Below are positions 35,319 to 41,185 of a stretch of 58,154 nt of DNA, piece by piece. The notes below the pieces were generated by a model. That model was given only the letters and a program-made list of their open reading frames with translations. It did not search any database and was not told the origin of the DNA. Origin of the DNA: Marinitoga sp. 1197 (GTDB lineage: Bacteria; Thermotogota; Thermotogae; Petrotogales; Petrotogaceae); the NCBI RefSeq assembly GCF_001021165.1, contig NZ_AZAY01000009.1, forward strand, positions 1 to 58,154, written 5' to 3'. The number at the start of each line of letters is the position of its first letter. The first letter of the stretch is position 1. The translations under genes and the position numbers were made by a program.

Positions 35319-36188
35319 ATGCATAAGAAATATTTATTGATATTATTTTTATTTATTGGGATTTTAGGATATTCTATAAACATTTCTGTTTCTATAAATC
35401 CTTATTATTTAATTTTAAAAGATATTATTGATAAAAATGATACTATAAATGTGATAGTTCCTTCAGGCAAAAGTCCTCATACATATTCATTATCCTCAAA
35501 GGATATTATAAATATTTATAAAAGTGATCTCATAATTTTTAACGGATTAAATTCAGAAATATTTATAAATAAAATCATTACCAATATTAAAAAGAAGAAA
35601 ATTCCGTACTTATTTATTTCTGAAATAATTCCGCGGAATGAATTGATTTTAAGTGATGAACACAATAATAAAAACAGCCATAATGAATTTTTTAATCCAC
35701 ATGTATGGTTAAATCCTTGTTTAGTATATAATTATATAATACCAGATATTGTTGAAAAGCTAGTTGAAATTAATCCTTCAAAAAAGGATGTTTATATTAA
35801 TAATGCAGAAATCTTAAAAGAAAAATTAAAACTTTTGGATGCATATTTATTAATAAAATCACGAGAAATAGAGGGCGGTATTATTACTTTTCATAATTCA
35901 TTTCCATATTTTGCCAAACGATATAATATAAATATTGCAGGAGTGATTGAGAACTCACCAGGTGTTGAACCGACAATATCTGAAATGAAAAAATTAACGG
36001 ATTTAGCTAGAAAAAACAAAGTAAAAGCAATTTTTTCTGAGCCTCAATTAAATAAGAAATTAGCAGAAAAATTAGCAAAAACTTTAAATTTAAATCTTGG
36101 AATTTTAGATCCACTTGGTACAAATGTTAATTCTATAGATGAGTTATATTTATCGACATTTTTAAATATATTAAATGCGATAAGGTGA
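35319..36188 (+). CDS. znuA: Zinc (or manganese) ABC transporter binding protein ZnuA
   Basis: Extracellular metal-binding protein of the cluster-9 (TroA/ZnuA) family. It has a signal peptide (KKYLLILFLFIGILGYS). Likely metal ligands sit in family motifs: SGKSPHTYSL, NPHVWLNPCLV, TFHNSFPYFAKRYNI and ILDPLGTN. Between the first two there is a short His/Asn/Asp loop (SDEHNNKNSHNE), the usual mark of zinc-type members. It is 289 residues, normal length. ATG 35319 has GGAGGTG upstream. It is followed 4 bases later by a Fur-family gene and then the ATPase and permease, so the operon is self-contained. Confidence 0.92.
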   Translation: MHKKYLLILFLFIGILGYSINISVSINPYYLILKDIIDKNDTINVIVPSGKSPHTYSLSSKDIINIYKSDLIIFNGLNSEIFINKIITNIKKKKIPYLFISEIIPRNELILSDEHNNKNSHNEFFNPHVWLNPCLVYNYIIPDIVEKLVEINPSKKDVYINNAEILKEKLKLLDAYLLIKSREIEGGIITFHNSFPYFAKRYNINIAGVIENSPGVEPTISEMKKLTDLARKNKVKAIFSEPQLNKKLAEKLAKTLNLNLGILDPLGTNVNSIDELYLSTFLNILNAIR

Positions 36189-36192
36189 TATT

Positions 36193-36576
36193 ATGAAATT
36201 AACAAAACCAAGGCGAGATATTTTGAAGATATATGAAAGGATTGAATATCCTTTAAATGCAGAGGAAATTTATAACCTTTTAAATAATGAATATGATCTT
36301 TCAACTATATATAGAAATCTAAATTTTTTTGAAAAAGAGAATATTTTAAAATCCATAGTTTTTTCTGATAAAATTACATATTATTACAAACCACAAGGGC
36401 ATTTCCATTTTATCTATTGTATAAGATGTAAAAGATTTGAACGTCTGGATTTATGTTTTGAAAAGCAATTCAAAGACTATATTGAAAAAAATATTCAGTT
36501 TAAAATTACAGATCATATTTTGTATTTTGAAGGAATTTGTTCTGAATGTCAAAAAGAGGGTGAATTTAATGTATGA
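36193..36576 (+). CDS. Fur-family metalloregulator, probably Zur
   Basis: A 127-residue metal-dependent repressor. The winged helix-turn-helix is at residues about 10-70 (LTKPRRDILKIYERI, LSTIYRNLNFFEKENIL). The regulatory half has HFHFIYCIRCKRFERLD, with metal-site His residues and a structural CxxC, and a second CxxC in EGICSECQKE. Placement inside znuA-znuCB and the absence of an iron-uptake gene argue for zinc sensing, and the inverted repeats ahead of znuA are its likely target. It overlaps znuC by 8 bases. Distinction from Fur or PerR is by context only. Confidence 0.9.
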   Translation: MKLTKPRRDILKIYERIEYPLNAEEIYNLLNNEYDLSTIYRNLNFFEKENILKSIVFSDKITYYYKPQGHFHFIYCIRCKRFERLDLCFEKQFKDYIEKNIQFKITDHILYFEGICSECQKEGEFNV

Positions 36577-37309
36577 AAAAATGATTGAAGTTAAGAATTT
36601 AAATTATTCAGTAGATAATAGTGATATTTTAAAATTTATAAATTTTGATATATATAAAAATGATTTTGTTGGAATTATAGGTCCTAATGGTGCTGGAAAA
36701 TCTACTTTGATAAAAATTTTAATTGGAGAAATAGAGAATTACACTGGAGAAATTAAAATTAATGGAAAAATAGGGTATGTTCCTCAAAAGGATGAAATTG
36801 ATAGAGAGTTTCCAATAAGGGCATTTGAAGTTGTTTTAATGGGGCTATATAACGAAGTTGGGTTATTTAAAAGATTTAAAAAAGAACATTATAAAAAGGC
36901 GAAAGAGATTATGAAGATGCTTGATATAGAATATATATACAATAGGCCAGTTGGAAAACTTTCAGGGGGTGAATATCAGCGCTTGATTTTAGCCAGAGCT
37001 TTGATTGGGAATCCGGAAATTTTAATATTGGATGAACCAGAAGCTGGTGTTGATAGTAAATCTCAGTCAAAGATATATAATATATTAGAAGATTTAAATA
37101 AAAAAGGAATGACAATTATACTAATAAGTCATGATATTTCTATGGTTGTAAAGAAAGCCAATACTATAATGTGTTTGAATAAAACTTTACATTGTCATAA
37201 AAACTCTGTTGAGATGACAGCAGAAGATTTAAAAAAGATTTATTCAGAAGATTTAGAATTATTAATACATATAAATAAACCGTTAAAAGTGGTGAGTAGA
37301 AATGATTGA
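36569..37309 (+). CDS. znuC: Zinc ABC transporter ATPase ZnuC
   Basis: ATPase of the metal importer, with Walker A GPNGAGKST, Q-loop GYVPQKDEIDREFPIRA, signature LSGGEYQR, Walker B ILILDEPEAGVD and switch His in ILISHDISMVVKKA. I choose ATG 36569 (start MYEKMIEVKNLNY), which overlaps the fur stop by 8 bases and has GAGGGTGAA upstream; the open frame extends further up only through the fur gene. This gives 246 residues, normal for ZnuC/MntB ATPases. The permease overlaps its 3' end by 8 bases. Confidence 0.92.
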   Translation: MYEKMIEVKNLNYSVDNSDILKFINFDIYKNDFVGIIGPNGAGKSTLIKILIGEIENYTGEIKINGKIGYVPQKDEIDREFPIRAFEVVLMGLYNEVGLFKRFKKEHYKKAKEIMKMLDIEYIYNRPVGKLSGGEYQRLILARALIGNPEILILDEPEAGVDSKSQSKIYNILEDLNKKGMTIILISHDISMVVKKANTIMCLNKTLHCHKNSVEMTAEDLKKIYSEDLELLIHINKPLKVVSRND

Positions 37310-38126
37310 TTTATTTTCTTATGATTTTATAATTTATGCGGTAATTGCTTCTATTCTGGCAAGTTTCAGTGCATCAATACTTTCAAATTATATAGTTTTA
37401 AAGAAAATGGAATTTATAGGAGAAGGAGCTGCTCATACAGCATTTGGAGGTATAGCATTAGCTATATTATTAAATCTTAATGTTGATTTAATTAGCATAA
37501 TTACTGCTATGTTATTTGGAACAACTATTTATTTTATTGGAAAAAGAGAAAAAATTAATGAAAATAGTGTAATTGGAATGATTTTATCATTTTCAATGGC
37601 TTTAGGGGTTATTTTTTTATATTTAAAACCTGGATATACACCAGAAATTACAAGTTATTTATTTGGTGATATTTTAATGGTAACCTCTAATGATGTGATG
37701 ATTTTAAGTTTTATATCATTTGTTATTTTTCTTTTTGTAATACTCTTTAATAAAGAATTGAAATATTATGCTTTTAATCCTAAAATGGCAAAAAATTATG
37801 GAATATCTGTGAATATGATTAATTATTTGTTTTTAATAATAGTATCTGTTGTTGTGGTGACTTCTGTGAAAATAATCGGAGTTATTTTAGTTACTTCTTT
37901 ATTGATTACTCCAGGTGCCATTTCTAAATTATTTGCTAAATCATTAAATCAGATGCTCATAATATCAGGCTTTATAGGTATTTTTTCCGGTTTTTTAGGT
38001 ATATTAATTGCTTATTTTATAAATATTCCTCCTGGACCGTCTATAGTTGTTACGTTATTTTCTATATTTATATTTTCATATATAATTAATTACTTAAAAA
38101 ATAAAACATTTTCTAAAAGAGCCTAA
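37302..38126 (+). CDS. znuB: Zinc ABC transporter permease ZnuB
   Basis: Membrane subunit of the cluster-9 metal importer, 274 residues with eight or nine hydrophobic segments. The N-terminal region has the family block NYIVLKKMEFIGEGAAHTAF; later come ITSYLFGDILMVTSNDV and LLITPGAISKLFAKSLNQM, the loop that contacts the ATPase. It ends in a basic tail. It is the last gene of the zinc operon; no strong terminator is visible in the next 70 bases before the corA promoter. Confidence 0.92.
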   Translation: MIDLFSYDFIIYAVIASILASFSASILSNYIVLKKMEFIGEGAAHTAFGGIALAILLNLNVDLISIITAMLFGTTIYFIGKREKINENSVIGMILSFSMALGVIFLYLKPGYTPEITSYLFGDILMVTSNDVMILSFISFVIFLFVILFNKELKYYAFNPKMAKNYGISVNMINYLFLIIVSVVVVTSVKIIGVILVTSLLITPGAISKLFAKSLNQMLIISGFIGIFSGFLGILIAYFINIPPGPSIVVTLFSIFIFSYIINYLKNKTFSKRA

Positions 38127-38199
38127 TTAACATCTTTAAATTTTTTTGTTAAAAAAGAGATTTAATTTCATTATGATTCTGAAAATATGATATTTTATA

Positions 38200-38208
38200 T
38201 GATATAAT
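38200..38208 (+). promoter_or_regulatory. Extended -10 promoter of corA
   Basis: TGATATAAT at 38200-38208, with a second TATAAT at 38217 in a near-exact 14-base direct repeat. The start would be near 38215, giving a leader of roughly 105 bases before corA that contains the 15-codon leader ORF. Confidence 0.5.
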
Positions 38209-38249
38209 TAAATGGATATAATTAAATTCAAAAAAGAGAGGTGAAAATT

Positions 38250-38297
38250 ATGGATTATTTTAGTTGTAGCGAAGATCCGTTGTCTAGACCGCCATAG
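38250..38297 (+). CDS. Leader peptide upstream of corA
   Basis: A 15-codon ORF encoding MDYFSCSEDPLSRPP, too short for normal gene calling. It has a strong ribosome site (GAGGTG, six bases before ATG, as in confirmed genes here) and ends 24 bases before the corA start, ahead of corA's own ribosome site. Acidic residues next to proline (SEDP) and a terminal Pro-Pro-stop are the composition known to destabilise or stall ribosomes when Mg2+ is low, as in the enterobacterial mgtL leader of mgtA. A Mg2+-responsive regulatory peptide is my inference; no attenuator hairpin is evident. Confidence 0.6.
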   Translation: MDYFSCSEDPLSRPP

Positions 38298-38321
38298 CAA
38301 TATATAAAAGGAGGAGATAAT

Positions 38322-39248
38322 ATGGTAAAATTTTATAGTAGAATTGAACATAAATTAGTGGAGGCAAAAAGCTTCTCTCAAGATGCATTAATAAAAGTTA
38401 TAAATCCATCTCAGGATGAAATACATATGCTATCAAGTTTGTTAAATTTTGATCCTGATTTTATTAATGATTCACTTGATGATGATGAAAGATCTCGTAT
38501 AGAAATTGATGAAGATACAATTTTATTAATATTAAAAGTTCCTATGAGAAATGAAGAAGATGAAAAAATACCATATAAAACAGTATCTCTTGGTATTATT
38601 ATAGGAAAAAATTATATATTACTTTCAATGAAAAATGAAATAGATTTCATTGAGAAAATGATAGAAGCAAGTTTATTGAATCCTCATAAAAAAAGTAAAA
38701 TGATTTTTCAAATTTTCTTTAAAAATGCAAAATTGTTTTTGGATTATCTAAAAGAAATAAATAAAACTATCGACTTAGTTGAAGAAGAATTACATAAATC
38801 TATGAAAAATTATGAGTTAGAAACATTAATGTATCTTGAGAAAAGTTTAGTGTACTTCACTACATCATTAAGATCAAATGAGATAATGATGGAAAAATTG
38901 TTAAAAGGTAAGATTTTAGAATTATATGAAGATGATCAGGATTTATTGGAAGATACCTTAATCGAAAATAGACAGGCAATAGAAGTAACTAATATTTATA
39001 GTAATATCTTATCTGGTATGATGGATGCTTATGCGTCTGTTATTTCAAATAATTTAAATATTGTTATGAAAATTTTGACAGTTGTAACCATATTGCTTCA
39101 AGTACCAACAATATTGACGAGTTTTTATGGAATGAATGTAAAATTACCGTTTCAAGAAAATCCTCTGGTATATATAAATATAATTATTTCATCATTAATA
39201 ATCATGTTTATGACATTTTTGTGGTTTAAAGGGAAAAAATGGTTATGA
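38322..39248 (+). CDS. corA: CorA-family magnesium/cobalt transporter
   Basis: Pentameric Mg2+ channel of the CorA/MIT family. The N-terminal cytoplasmic domain (residues 1-240) is acidic and ends in long helices. Two transmembrane helices close the protein, the first ending in the selectivity motif YGMNVKLPF (GMN), the second followed by the basic tail FKGKKW. At 308 residues it is slightly shorter than the Thermotoga maritima protein. ATG 38322 has AAAGGAGGAGAT upstream. It is preceded by a 15-codon leader peptide, suggesting translational control, and followed by a terminator. Confidence 0.93.
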   Translation: MVKFYSRIEHKLVEAKSFSQDALIKVINPSQDEIHMLSSLLNFDPDFINDSLDDDERSRIEIDEDTILLILKVPMRNEEDEKIPYKTVSLGIIIGKNYILLSMKNEIDFIEKMIEASLLNPHKKSKMIFQIFFKNAKLFLDYLKEINKTIDLVEEELHKSMKNYELETLMYLEKSLVYFTTSLRSNEIMMEKLLKGKILELYEDDQDLLEDTLIENRQAIEVTNIYSNILSGMMDAYASVISNNLNIVMKILTVVTILLQVPTILTSFYGMNVKLPFQENPLVYINIIISSLIIMFMTFLWFKGKKWL

Positions 39249-39337: not shown

Positions 39338-40519
39338 TTGAAATATAAGGAAAAAAATTTAGGTCAGATTTTTACACCATCACATATAGTTGAAAAAATG
39401 GTTAGATTAATAAGATATGGAAATAATATTTTAGAACCGGCTGTAGGGAATGGAGAATTTTTAAAACAATTAAAAAATTATAAAAATATTATATCTATAG
39501 AAATTGATAGAAGTTTTTCATTTGATATAATATCAGAAAACCTTCCGTCAATTATTTTTAGTGATTTTTTTGATTACTCAATAAAAAATAAATTTGACAC
39601 AATTATTGGAAATCCTCCATATGTAAAATATTCAAATATAATTCCAGAAACCAGAAAAAAGTTAAAAAAATTTAATATTTTATTTGATGGGAGAACAAAC
39701 CTTTTTCTTTACTTTATTTATAAATCGTATCTTCATTTAAAAGAAAAAGGAGAAATCATATTTATTGTACCAAGAGAATTATTTGATTTAACTTCTGCTT
39801 TAAGAGTCAATCAATTACTTCATGAGAATGGAACTTTTACACATATATATACTTTTGGAGATAAAAAAATATTTGGTAAGGGGTTTTCACCAAATGTAAT
39901 GATTTTTCGATATGAAAAAGGTAATATGTCTCATGAAACTATATATAATGATGAAAAAAGATATCAATATTGTTCAAAAGGTTTTATTTATTTTATAAAA
40001 GAAAAAAATTATTCTATGCATTTAAGCGATATTGCATATGTTAAAGTAGGAGGAGTAAGTGGGGCTGATGAAGTATTTGCTCATGAATCTGGAAATATAG
40101 AAGTTGTTTGTTCTTACACACAAAAAACAGGAAAAACTAAGAGGATGATTTATAATACTATTAATGATCACCTTCTAAAACATAAAGAAAAATTATTAAA
40201 AAGAAAAATTAAAAAATTTGATGAAAACAATTGGTGGAAATGGGGAAGAGATTTTTATATTTCTGATAGACCAAGAATATATGTAAATGCCAAAACAAGA
40301 AACAAAAAACCTTTTTTTATTCACGAATCAAAATATTATGATGGAAGTATTCTGGGTATTTTTCCAAAAAATAAAAATATTGATTTAGTAGAATTAAGAA
40401 ACATGTTAAATGATTTAAATTGGGAAGAATTGGGTTTTATTTGCGATGGAAGATATATATTTACGCAAAAAAAATTAGAAAATGTAATATTACCAGAAGA
40501 TTTTCAAAAATTTATTTAA
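39338..40519 (+). CDS. Orphan adenine-specific DNA methyltransferase
   Basis: N6-adenine DNA methyltransferase of the gamma-like class used by type I and IIG systems. The first block GQIFTPSHIVEKMVRL, motif I ILEPAVGNGEFLKQL (SAM binding) and motif IV TIIGNPPYVKYSN (catalytic NPPY) are in the usual order; a C-terminal region from about residue 225 would be the target-recognition domain. At 393 residues it has no nuclease domain, and no restriction gene is adjacent, so it may act as a solitary or regulatory methylase. TTG 39338 follows TTGGAGGGAG. It faces a tRNA-Cys gene across a shared terminator. Confidence 0.88.
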   Translation: MKYKEKNLGQIFTPSHIVEKMVRLIRYGNNILEPAVGNGEFLKQLKNYKNIISIEIDRSFSFDIISENLPSIIFSDFFDYSIKNKFDTIIGNPPYVKYSNIIPETRKKLKKFNILFDGRTNLFLYFIYKSYLHLKEKGEIIFIVPRELFDLTSALRVNQLLHENGTFTHIYTFGDKKIFGKGFSPNVMIFRYEKGNMSHETIYNDEKRYQYCSKGFIYFIKEKNYSMHLSDIAYVKVGGVSGADEVFAHESGNIEVVCSYTQKTGKTKRMIYNTINDHLLKHKEKLLKRKIKKFDENNWWKWGRDFYISDRPRIYVNAKTRNKKPFFIHESKYYDGSILGIFPKNKNIDLVELRNMLNDLNWEELGFICDGRYIFTQKKLENVILPEDFQKFI

Positions 40520-40556
40520 TAATAAAATTTTTTAAAAGAAGATTAATTATAAAAAC

Positions 40557-40580
40557 AAAATCCCCCATCTGGGGGATTTT
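40557..40580. terminator. Bidirectional terminator between the methyltransferase and tRNA-Cys
   Basis: AAAATCCCCC / GGGGGATTTT with loop ATCT. It serves the + strand methyltransferase and the - strand tRNA, 14 bases beyond the tRNA 3' end. Confidence 0.9.
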
Positions 40581-40594
40581 TATATTAATATTGA

Positions 40595-40671
40595 TGGAGG
40601 CAACGGTGGGATTTGAACCCACGAATAGCGATTTTGCAGACCGCCGCCTTAGACCCCTTGGCTACGTTGCC
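40595..40671 (-). tRNA. tRNA-Cys (GCA)
   Basis: The acceptor stem GGCAACG / CGTTGCC pairs fully; the anticodon loop CTGCAAA gives anticodon GCA; the T-arm is GTGGGTTCAAATCCCAC. The discriminator is U73, an identity element of cysteine tRNAs, and the 3' CCA is encoded. Confidence 0.96.
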
Positions 40672-40683
40672 TTAACCGAATTT

Positions 40684-40692
40684 ATTATACCA
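40684..40692 (-). promoter_or_regulatory. Extended -10 promoter of tRNA-Cys
   Basis: On the minus strand this reads TGGTATAAT, ending 12 bases before the mature tRNA 5' end at 40671. The upstream hexamer at 17 bp is weak. Confidence 0.5.
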
Positions 40693-40729
40693 TATTTATT
40701 ATTAAGGTATATGGAAGAAAATATAAATT

Positions 40730-41185
40730 TTACTTAAAATCTTTCTTTTTTCTATAATACATTTGAATTCCAATTTCATCTAAATTTCTATTTTCCTCTC
40801 TCTGGTATTCTATTTTGTATTCCTCGAATTTTCTTTCCTTTAATTTTTCTAAAATGATTCTATTTTTACGAGCTTCTAGATATTCTTTTCTCTTTTCTTC
40901 TTCTATAGCAACTTTTTCTCTATATATATCGCCTAATTTTATTTTTTCTTTTTCTAAAGATTCTAGATAAGATCTCCATTGCTGGATTTCCTGTATAGTC
41001 ATCAGGTTTTGTGAAATTTGTTTAATAAATCTTTCATTTTCCAATTTTATTTTGTTATTTATGGCAACAAGCTTTTCCTCTGCTTTTATTCTTTCAGCAG
41101 TGGCTTCTAAAAAAATTCTTTTTGCTTCTTCTTCAAGGCGTTCTCTTAAATTTTTTAATCTTTCAAGATTAAATTTAAATCTCAT
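40730..41185 (-). CDS. fliJ: Flagellar export chaperone FliJ
   Basis: FliJ is the coiled-coil stalk of the flagellar export ATPase (FliI). The sequence is almost entirely charged heptad-like helix, with the family opening FKFNLERLKNLRERLEEEAK and a conserved central QEIQQWRSYLESLEKEK. Length is 151 residues, as expected. I use ATG 41185 (-), with GGTGATTTG upstream, not TTG 41188. It is the last gene of a unit with fabG, a radical SAM gene and a PAS/AAA+ regulator, far from the other flagellar genes in the window. Coiled-coil resemblance alone could mislead, but the N-terminal block favours FliJ. Confidence 0.78.
   Translation of the reverse strand: MRFKFNLERLKNLRERLEEEAKRIFLEATAERIKAEEKLVAINNKIKLENERFIKQISQNLMTIQEIQQWRSYLESLEKEKIKLGDIYREKVAIEEEKRKEYLEARKNRIILEKLKERKFEEYKIEYQREENRNLDEIGIQMYYRKKKDFK

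What the first reader, a model, noticed from the sequence alone, without database searches (positions are those of the whole stretch)
38250..38297. A translated Asp/Glu/Pro leader peptide ahead of the magnesium channel gene corA
A 15-codon ORF (MDYFSCSEDPLSRPP) has a ribosome site as good as those of confirmed genes and stops 24 bases before corA. Enterobacterial mgtL leaders sense low Mg2+ because acidic and proline codons destabilise Mg2+-poor ribosomes; this peptide has SEDP and ends Pro-Pro-stop. CorA is a different transporter and this phylum is distant, so a Mg2+-responsive leader here would be an independent or undescribed case.
Basis: partly seen in the sequence, partly recalled or inferred. 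Interest (0 to 1): 0.66.

Follow-up and report, generated by a model that had tools for sequence, protein, structure and literature searches.

The report
Pro-Pro-stop leader peptide before magnesium channels
A 15-codon mini-gene just ahead of the magnesium channel gene corA is conserved, and mini-genes of the same pattern, ending in two prolines and a stop, precede either of two unrelated magnesium channel genes across this bacterial phylum, so the cell probably uses a paused ribosome to control magnesium uptake.

Summary
The ORF at 38250-38297 (MDYFSCSEDPLSRPP*) is real and under selection. It is present in all seven genomes of the genus: 93% identical without gaps, between flanks of 34-56% identity. 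A pattern for its C-terminus finds 16 matches in 103 Thermotogota genomes, all directly before corA. Relatives that have the unrelated Mg2+ channel MgtE instead of CorA carry the same kind of leader before mgtE. Overall, 25 of 41 corA and 40 of 57 mgtE genes have a Ser/acidic-containing mini-ORF ending Pro-Pro-stop, with ten different Pro-Pro codon pairs, so the peptide is what is conserved. A blind pattern gave 38 in-frame mini-ORFs; 37 precede corA or mgtE.

Best reading: a regulatory leader tied to Mg2+ uptake. A ribosome slowed at Pro-Pro-stop sits beside the channel's Shine-Dalgarno (0-19 nt away) and blocks it; low Mg2+ would release it. Conservation and geometry are shown; Mg2+ dependence, pausing and direction are inferred. 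Kosmotogaceae-like relatives, with long structured spacers, do not fit the simple model.

"Unprecedented for CorA" is wrong: enterobacterial corA has the corL leader. The phylum-wide Pro-Pro-stop form shared by two unrelated channels was not found in the literature searched. New variant of a known kind.

The parts
38196..38210 (+). Likely -10 region (TATGATATAAT) of the corA leader promoter
   Evidence: Sequence; pairwise identity 0.876 with no gaps in 7 genomes between poorly conserved flanks. Promoter function inferred.
38234..38249 (+). Shine-Dalgarno region of the leader ORF (AGAGAGGTGAAAATT)
   Evidence: Sequence; identity 0.827, no gaps
38250..38297 (+). Leader ORF MDYFSCSEDPLSRPP*, ending Pro-Pro-TAG
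   Evidence: Conserved in 7/7 genomes of the genus, mostly third-position changes; diverged relatives before corA and mgtE across the phylum
38298..38321 (+). 24-nt spacer with the corA Shine-Dalgarno GGAGG, which starts 12 nt after the leader stop
   Evidence: stop-to-GGAGG distance is 0-19 nt and stop-to-start 11-31 nt in 27 tabulated close-type leaders
38322..39248 (+). corA, 308 aa, Bacillota-type CorA Mg2+ channel; the only CorA found in this genome
   Evidence: Pfam PF01544, E 4e-53; one match in the own genome; no MgtE and no MgtA over the cut-off

Best explanation
The ORF is a short, translated cis-regulatory leader of the Mg2+ channel gene. The mRNA starts a few tens of bases upstream; ribosomes translate 15 codons and arrive at Arg-Pro-Pro-stop, where peptide release is slow. 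A ribosome waiting there covers, or crowds, the channel's Shine-Dalgarno 12 nt downstream, so corA is translated poorly while Mg2+ is sufficient. When Mg2+ is scarce the ribosome carrying this short acidic/Pro peptide falls apart or is recycled sooner, the Shine-Dalgarno becomes free and more CorA is made. Shown: the ORF, its selection as peptide, its attachment to two unrelated Mg2+ channel genes, the Pro-Pro-stop ending and the spacing. Inferred: translation, pausing, Mg2+ dependence and the direction of control. My own estimates: translated and selected 0.95; controls channel expression 0.85-0.9; Mg2+ (or something tightly tied to it) is the signal 0.7; occlusion by a ribosome parked at Pro-Pro-stop 0.5.
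For: Conservation of the ORF against diverged flanks and third-position bias. Between this genus and a distant family (corA about 70% identical) the ends ...EDPLSRPP* and ...DEPLSRPP* differ in DNA only at third positions (compare L001 and L012). Same grammar before corA (25/41) and mgtE (40/57); all 53 PP* leaders tabulated contain Ser and an acidic residue, and ten different Pro-Pro codon pairs are used across, so the peptide rather than an RNA sequence is kept. Blind pattern search: 37 of 38 in-frame hits in 103 genomes precede corA (15) or mgtE (22). In the window's family the genera with this corA lack full MgtE and vice versa. No M-box in 103 genomes. The window RNA is no more structured than shuffles, so a structure-free mechanism is needed. 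Pro-Pro-stop is among the strongest termination-stalling contexts and is depleted in genomes (odds ratio 0.44), and C-terminal Pro depletion is stronger in clades without RF3 (PMC7246954); RF3 is not found over its cut-off in any of 103 Thermotogota. Precedents for acidic/Pro leaders and Mg2+: mgtL, corL, mgtQ.
Against: No expression, ribosome profiling or Mg2+ data here. Kosmotogaceae-type leaders sit 72 nt or more before corA, whose Shine-Dalgarno is buried in a strong hairpin that a ribosome at the leader stop would not open, and 7 of 10 genomes of that genus end EPPL*. 8 corA and 15 mgtE genes have no recognisable leader, so it is not obligatory. Some leaders have only one acidic residue (MESTSLPP*), which weakens the intrinsic-destabilisation part. 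In Salmonella low Mg2+ slows Pro codons; if that dominated here, the sign of the occlusion model would be wrong.
Confidence: 0.5

Rival explanations
1. Translational coupling: the leader is an antenna; ribosomes ending on it re-initiate at the nearby corA start and raise its translation, without sensing Mg2+.
For: Short stop-to-start distances, 11-31 nt; a general re-initiation role of short leaders has been proposed (PMC4833913).
Against: Does not explain why the peptide, and Pro-Pro-stop above all, is kept across families, nor why such leaders sit almost only before Mg2+ channels. The distance peak reported for such coupling in most phyla is 10-11 bp, not about 24, and that paper's reviewer exchange notes a minimum there for Thermotogae.
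Confidence: 0.15
2. The leader senses something else that affects Pro-Pro translation or termination (proline or EF-P supply, release factor activity, polyamines) and adjusts Mg2+ uptake accordingly.
For: Pro-Pro-stop is the most constant element; C-terminal Pro-Pro stalls termination (PMC7246954); RF3 not found in the phylum.
Against: The only shared property of the two downstream gene families is Mg2+ transport.
Confidence: 0.15
3. Low-Mg2+-induced stalling on the leader turns the channel gene ON (mRNA protection or opening of structure), as in mgtL/mgtQ-type attenuation, with the sign opposite to the occlusion step.
For: mgtL and mgtQ precedents; in Kosmotogaceae-type leaders a ribosome at the stop weakens the hairpin over the corA start; two mgtE genes (L132, L165) have long acidic/Pro leaders whose own start region pairs inside the leader.
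Against: No regulatory structure in the window's leader and only 24 nt between stop and corA, with the Shine-Dalgarno within or next to the footprint.
Confidence: 0.15
4. Chance ORF with no function.
For: Short AT-rich intergenic regions often hold small ORFs.
Confidence: 0.02

Closest known systems
corL, leader ORF of corA in Salmonella and E. coli (within the gamma-proteobacterial corA motif)
   Same: Short translated uORF before corA, linked to Mg2+; efficient corL translation lowers corA (PMC11552253).
   Different: corL lies in a long structured leader with Rho-dependent termination; here the leader RNA is unstructured, stop-to-start is 24 nt, and the peptide ends Pro-Pro-stop. Not found outside gamma-proteobacteria as a motif (PMC6429828).
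mgtL, leader of mgtA in enterobacteria
   Same: Short peptide with acidic residues at the N-terminus and Pro codons before a Mg2+ transporter gene.
   Different: mgtL acts through competing RNA structures and transcription termination; here no such structure and a C-terminal Pro-Pro-stop next to the downstream Shine-Dalgarno.
mgtQ, intergenic uORF before mgtB in Salmonella
   Same: Acts on translation of a Mg2+ transporter; acidic codons (Asp2, Glu5) matter (PMC8092293). Acidic residue at codon 2 is also usual here (46 of 53 PP* leaders).
   Different: mgtQ releases a Shine-Dalgarno from a stem-loop; the window has no such stem-loop.
TnaC and RAPP-type arrest peptides
   Same: Nascent peptide with C-terminal Pro; [quoted passage not shown]
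   Different: Different signal (Trp, protein export) and different downstream genes; no RAPP motif here (SRPP, LPP, KPP).

Membership tests
Mg2+-linked leader peptides (mgtL/corL/mgtQ kind, by function) | Short ORF with its own ribosome site directly before a Mg2+ transporter gene | tested here: met
Mg2+-linked leader peptides (mgtL/corL/mgtQ kind, by function) | Peptide sequence conserved at codon level | tested here: met
   ten Pro-Pro codon pairs
Mg2+-linked leader peptides (mgtL/corL/mgtQ kind, by function) | Acidic and/or proline codons in the leader | tested here: met
   All 53 PP* leaders tabulated have at least one acidic residue, and all end Pro-Pro
Mg2+-linked leader peptides (mgtL/corL/mgtQ kind, by function) | Expression of the downstream gene changes with Mg2+ through translation of the leader | not testable with these tools
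   Needs reporter or profiling experiments
enterobacterial mgtL/corL (homologous family) | Structured leader with competing conformations and Rho-dependent or structural attenuation | tested here: not met
   Window leader folds no better than shuffles, z +0.86; 24-nt spacer; no Rfam family at the site
M-box riboswitch (RF00380) | Covariance-model match upstream of the transporter | tested here: not met
   None in the window or in 103 Thermotogota; present before corA in two Bacillota relatives
RAPP-type arrest peptides | RAPP-like C-terminal motif before protein-localisation genes | tested here: not met
   C-terminus is SRPP-stop and the downstream gene is a Mg2+ channel

The most novel reading that the evidence does not exclude
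A ribosome parked at Pro-Pro-stop is itself the Mg2+ sensor: its residence time on the channel's Shine-Dalgarno rises with Mg2+, needing no RNA switch. The device is phylum-wide in Thermotogota, serves two unrelated channel families, and, with the acidic/Pro leaders found here before Bacillota corA genes, makes translation-based Mg2+ sensing a broad bacterial strategy rather than an enterobacterial speciality.
Probability: 0.35. Interest if true: 0.85.

Novelty: new variant of a known kind. Interest (0 to 1): 0.7.

Why it matters
How bacteria without a known Mg2+ riboswitch control Mg2+ uptake is largely open. Here a leader as short as eight codons (MESTSLPP*) would do the job with no RNA structure, using the ribosome, itself Mg2+-dependent, as the detector. 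The same peptide ending before two non-homologous channels is strong comparative evidence for a shared signal, and it can be tested with simple reporters and in vitro toeprinting. It also widens Mg2+-linked leader peptides, known from enterobacteria, to Thermotogota and probably Bacillota.

Tried and rejected
M-box or another Rfam element at the site: none. An attenuator or Shine-Dalgarno-sequestering hairpin in the window's leader: not supported, z +0.86 and +1.09. Pro-Pro codons conserved as an anti-Shine-Dalgarno (CCUCC): rejected as the general reason because ten different codon pairs occur, mostly CCACCA, CCGCCA and CCACCG, although in Thermotoga-type genomes CCUCC can pair with the mgtE Shine-Dalgarno. 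Stop-codon read-through into corA: open in L113-type sequences but closed by stops in L111 and L027 (read), so not conserved. Leader retained at one locus while the channel gene was swapped: the upstream sequence differs (znuABC-fur-like genes in the window, a membrane transporter-like C-terminus in several g6 genomes), so shared grammar may be transfer or convergence; not resolved. A first automatic census of corA miscounted (13 of 41) because it picked the neighbouring longer ORF; it was redone. The prfC search rang in every genome, but all matches are below the curated cut-off and have EF-G length.

Full report
Observation. corA is a clear CorA (PF01544, E 4e-53) and the only CorA match in its genome. 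MgtE was not found in that genome and no MgtA-type ATPase passes the cut-off, so CorA is the only recognised Mg2+ importer there. Upstream lie a ZnuA-like protein, a Fur-family regulator and an ABC transporter; downstream is a methylase.

Selection on the ORF. In the seven genomes of the genus the leader is present every time. Mean pairwise identity is 0.931 with no gaps, against 0.336 for the 5' UTR and 0.556 for the spacer behind it; the -10 box (0.876) and both Shine-Dalgarno regions (0.83, 0.88) are the other conserved islands. Nine sites vary: six are third codon positions, one is ATG/GTG at the start codon. A degenerate pattern for [DE][DE]PL[SP]RPP* hits 16 of 103 Thermotogota genomes, once each, always at corA, with no reversed-control hits.

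The same leader kind before another channel. In the window's family the genera with this corA have no full MgtE, and most other genera have MgtE and no corA of this type. Reading upstream of those mgtE genes showed leaders such as MDSTGSFFEFSDLPP*, MGSKSKNYSDLPP*, MDNCDSSKQKPP* and MEDPLSSYSNKPP*. Across the phylum the mgtE leaders run from MEYPSYSSNKPP* and MEGTSSSLSLPP* to MESTSLPP*, MGEDYPSSRPP* and MEDYPGSRPP*. The census gives 40 of 57 mgtE and 25 of 41 corA genes with Pro-Pro-stop leaders, eight further corA genes having Kosmotogaceae-type variants (EPPL*, AMPN*). These come from more than 20 genera. All 53 PP* leaders tabulated contain Ser and an acidic residue; 46 have Asp or Glu as second residue. 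(under-counted corA; one search is the corrected corA count.) Ten different Pro-Pro codon pairs are used, so an RNA sequence is not what is kept.

Specificity. A blind pattern (GAGGTG, start codon plus GA, then CCNCCN and a stop-like codon) over 103 genomes gave 45 matches, of which 38 are in-frame mini-ORFs with a true stop. By position 37 of these precede corA (15) or mgtE (22); one (G014) does not (positions compared). By eye, no such leader was seen before the other, more distant CorA type (L122-L130). CorA and MgtE are unrelated proteins (established knowledge); what they share is Mg2+ conduction. This is the main reason to link the leader to Mg2+.

Anatomy. In 27 tabulated close-type leaders the downstream GGAGG begins 0-19 nt after the leader stop and the channel start 11-31 nt after it, median 24. 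A ribosome covers about 12 nt beyond the codon being read (PMC4833913), so one waiting at the stop would cover or crowd the channel's ribosome site. The window RNA folds no better than shuffled sequence (z +0.86), so control by RNA structure is unlikely here. Pro-Pro before a stop is one of the strongest termination-stalling contexts reported in E. coli and is depleted in bacterial proteomes; C-terminal Pro depletion is stronger in clades without RF3 (PMC7246954). No Thermotogota genome has a prfC match over the cut-off (the matches have EF-G length). No M-box was found in 103 genomes (with stricter filters that can lose weak matches).

Mechanism. I commit to: ribosome parked at Pro-Pro-stop occludes the channel's ribosome site when Mg2+ is ample; low Mg2+ shortens its stay. 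The parts, spacing and conservation are shown; translation, pausing, Mg2+ dependence and sign are inferred. The enterobacterial uORFs point the same way: efficient corL or mgtL translation goes with low transporter expression, and acidic/Pro codons with unstable translation at low Mg2+ (PMC11552253; mgtQ, PMC8092293).

What does not fit. Kosmotogaceae-type genomes have MELYSSE-type leaders ending EPPL*, EPPP* or LPP*, then a long spacer in which the corA Shine-Dalgarno is paired in a strong hairpin; placing a ribosome at the leader stop removes outer pairs but does not open it. Two mgtE genes (L132, L165) have longer acidic/Pro leaders whose start region pairs inside the leader. Either the output step differs by clade, or the occlusion step is wrong and only the sensing step is shared. 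Eight corA and fifteen mgtE genes have no leader that I could recognise.

Wider reach. Of 73 more distant corA loci, mostly Bacillota, 29 have a Shine-Dalgarno-led upstream ORF starting M-x(1-4)-[Asp/Glu/Gly]-Pro, against a shuffled mean of 2.5 (maximum 8) and 9 of 251 regions upstream of other genes in the same loci. Two such loci also carry an M-box before corA, which ties this corA type to Mg2+ control. These differ in form (N-terminal rather than C-terminal Pro) and were not studied further.

Literature. corL in Salmonella and E. coli (PMC11552253) removes the claim that a corA leader peptide is unprecedented. The gamma-proteobacterial corA motif (PMC6429828) and a Thioalkalivibrio mgtE motif (PMC11109978) are structured and elsewhere. 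Ten text searches of the open library found no report of these leaders in Thermotogota or Bacillota; most subscription papers are not held, so novelty is provisional.

Noticed in passing
L038-L110 (29 of 73 loci): Bacillota-type corA genes often have an upstream ORF starting M-x(1-4)-[D/E/G]-P (MDADPYSR, MDSGPEHSC, MGTDPGGS), far above shuffled or other-gene controls; apparently undescribed.
   Followed up: partly
L042 2525-2687, L084 2591-2759: M-box riboswitch before corA, with an acidic/Pro-start ORF (MDSSPLPNSKRRK.., MDGDPSGSYHK..) between it and corA: possibly two Mg2+ controls in series.
   Followed up: no
L027-L030, L111-L120: Kosmotogaceae-type corA: MELYSSE leaders followed by a strong hairpin that hides the corA Shine-Dalgarno; the sequestering arm differs between genera but the pairing is kept.
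   Followed up: partly
L132, L165: Two mgtE genes with longer acidic/Pro leaders (MSNEDSVPDSS.., MEEDLPDSY..) whose Shine-Dalgarno/start region is complementary to the middle of the leader.
   Followed up: partly
Thermotogota genomes: This corA type and mgtE are largely complementary between genera; in G035, G101 and G102, which have two mgtE genes, only one copy has the leader.
   Followed up: no
window 35319-38126: ZnuA-like, Fur-family, ABC ATPase and ABC-3 permease genes directly upstream: a likely zinc or manganese uptake operon with its regulator.
   Followed up: no
window 40420-40737: The 105-aa ORF on the + strand overlaps a tRNA-Cys gene on the - strand (40595-40671) and is probably spurious.
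   Followed up: no
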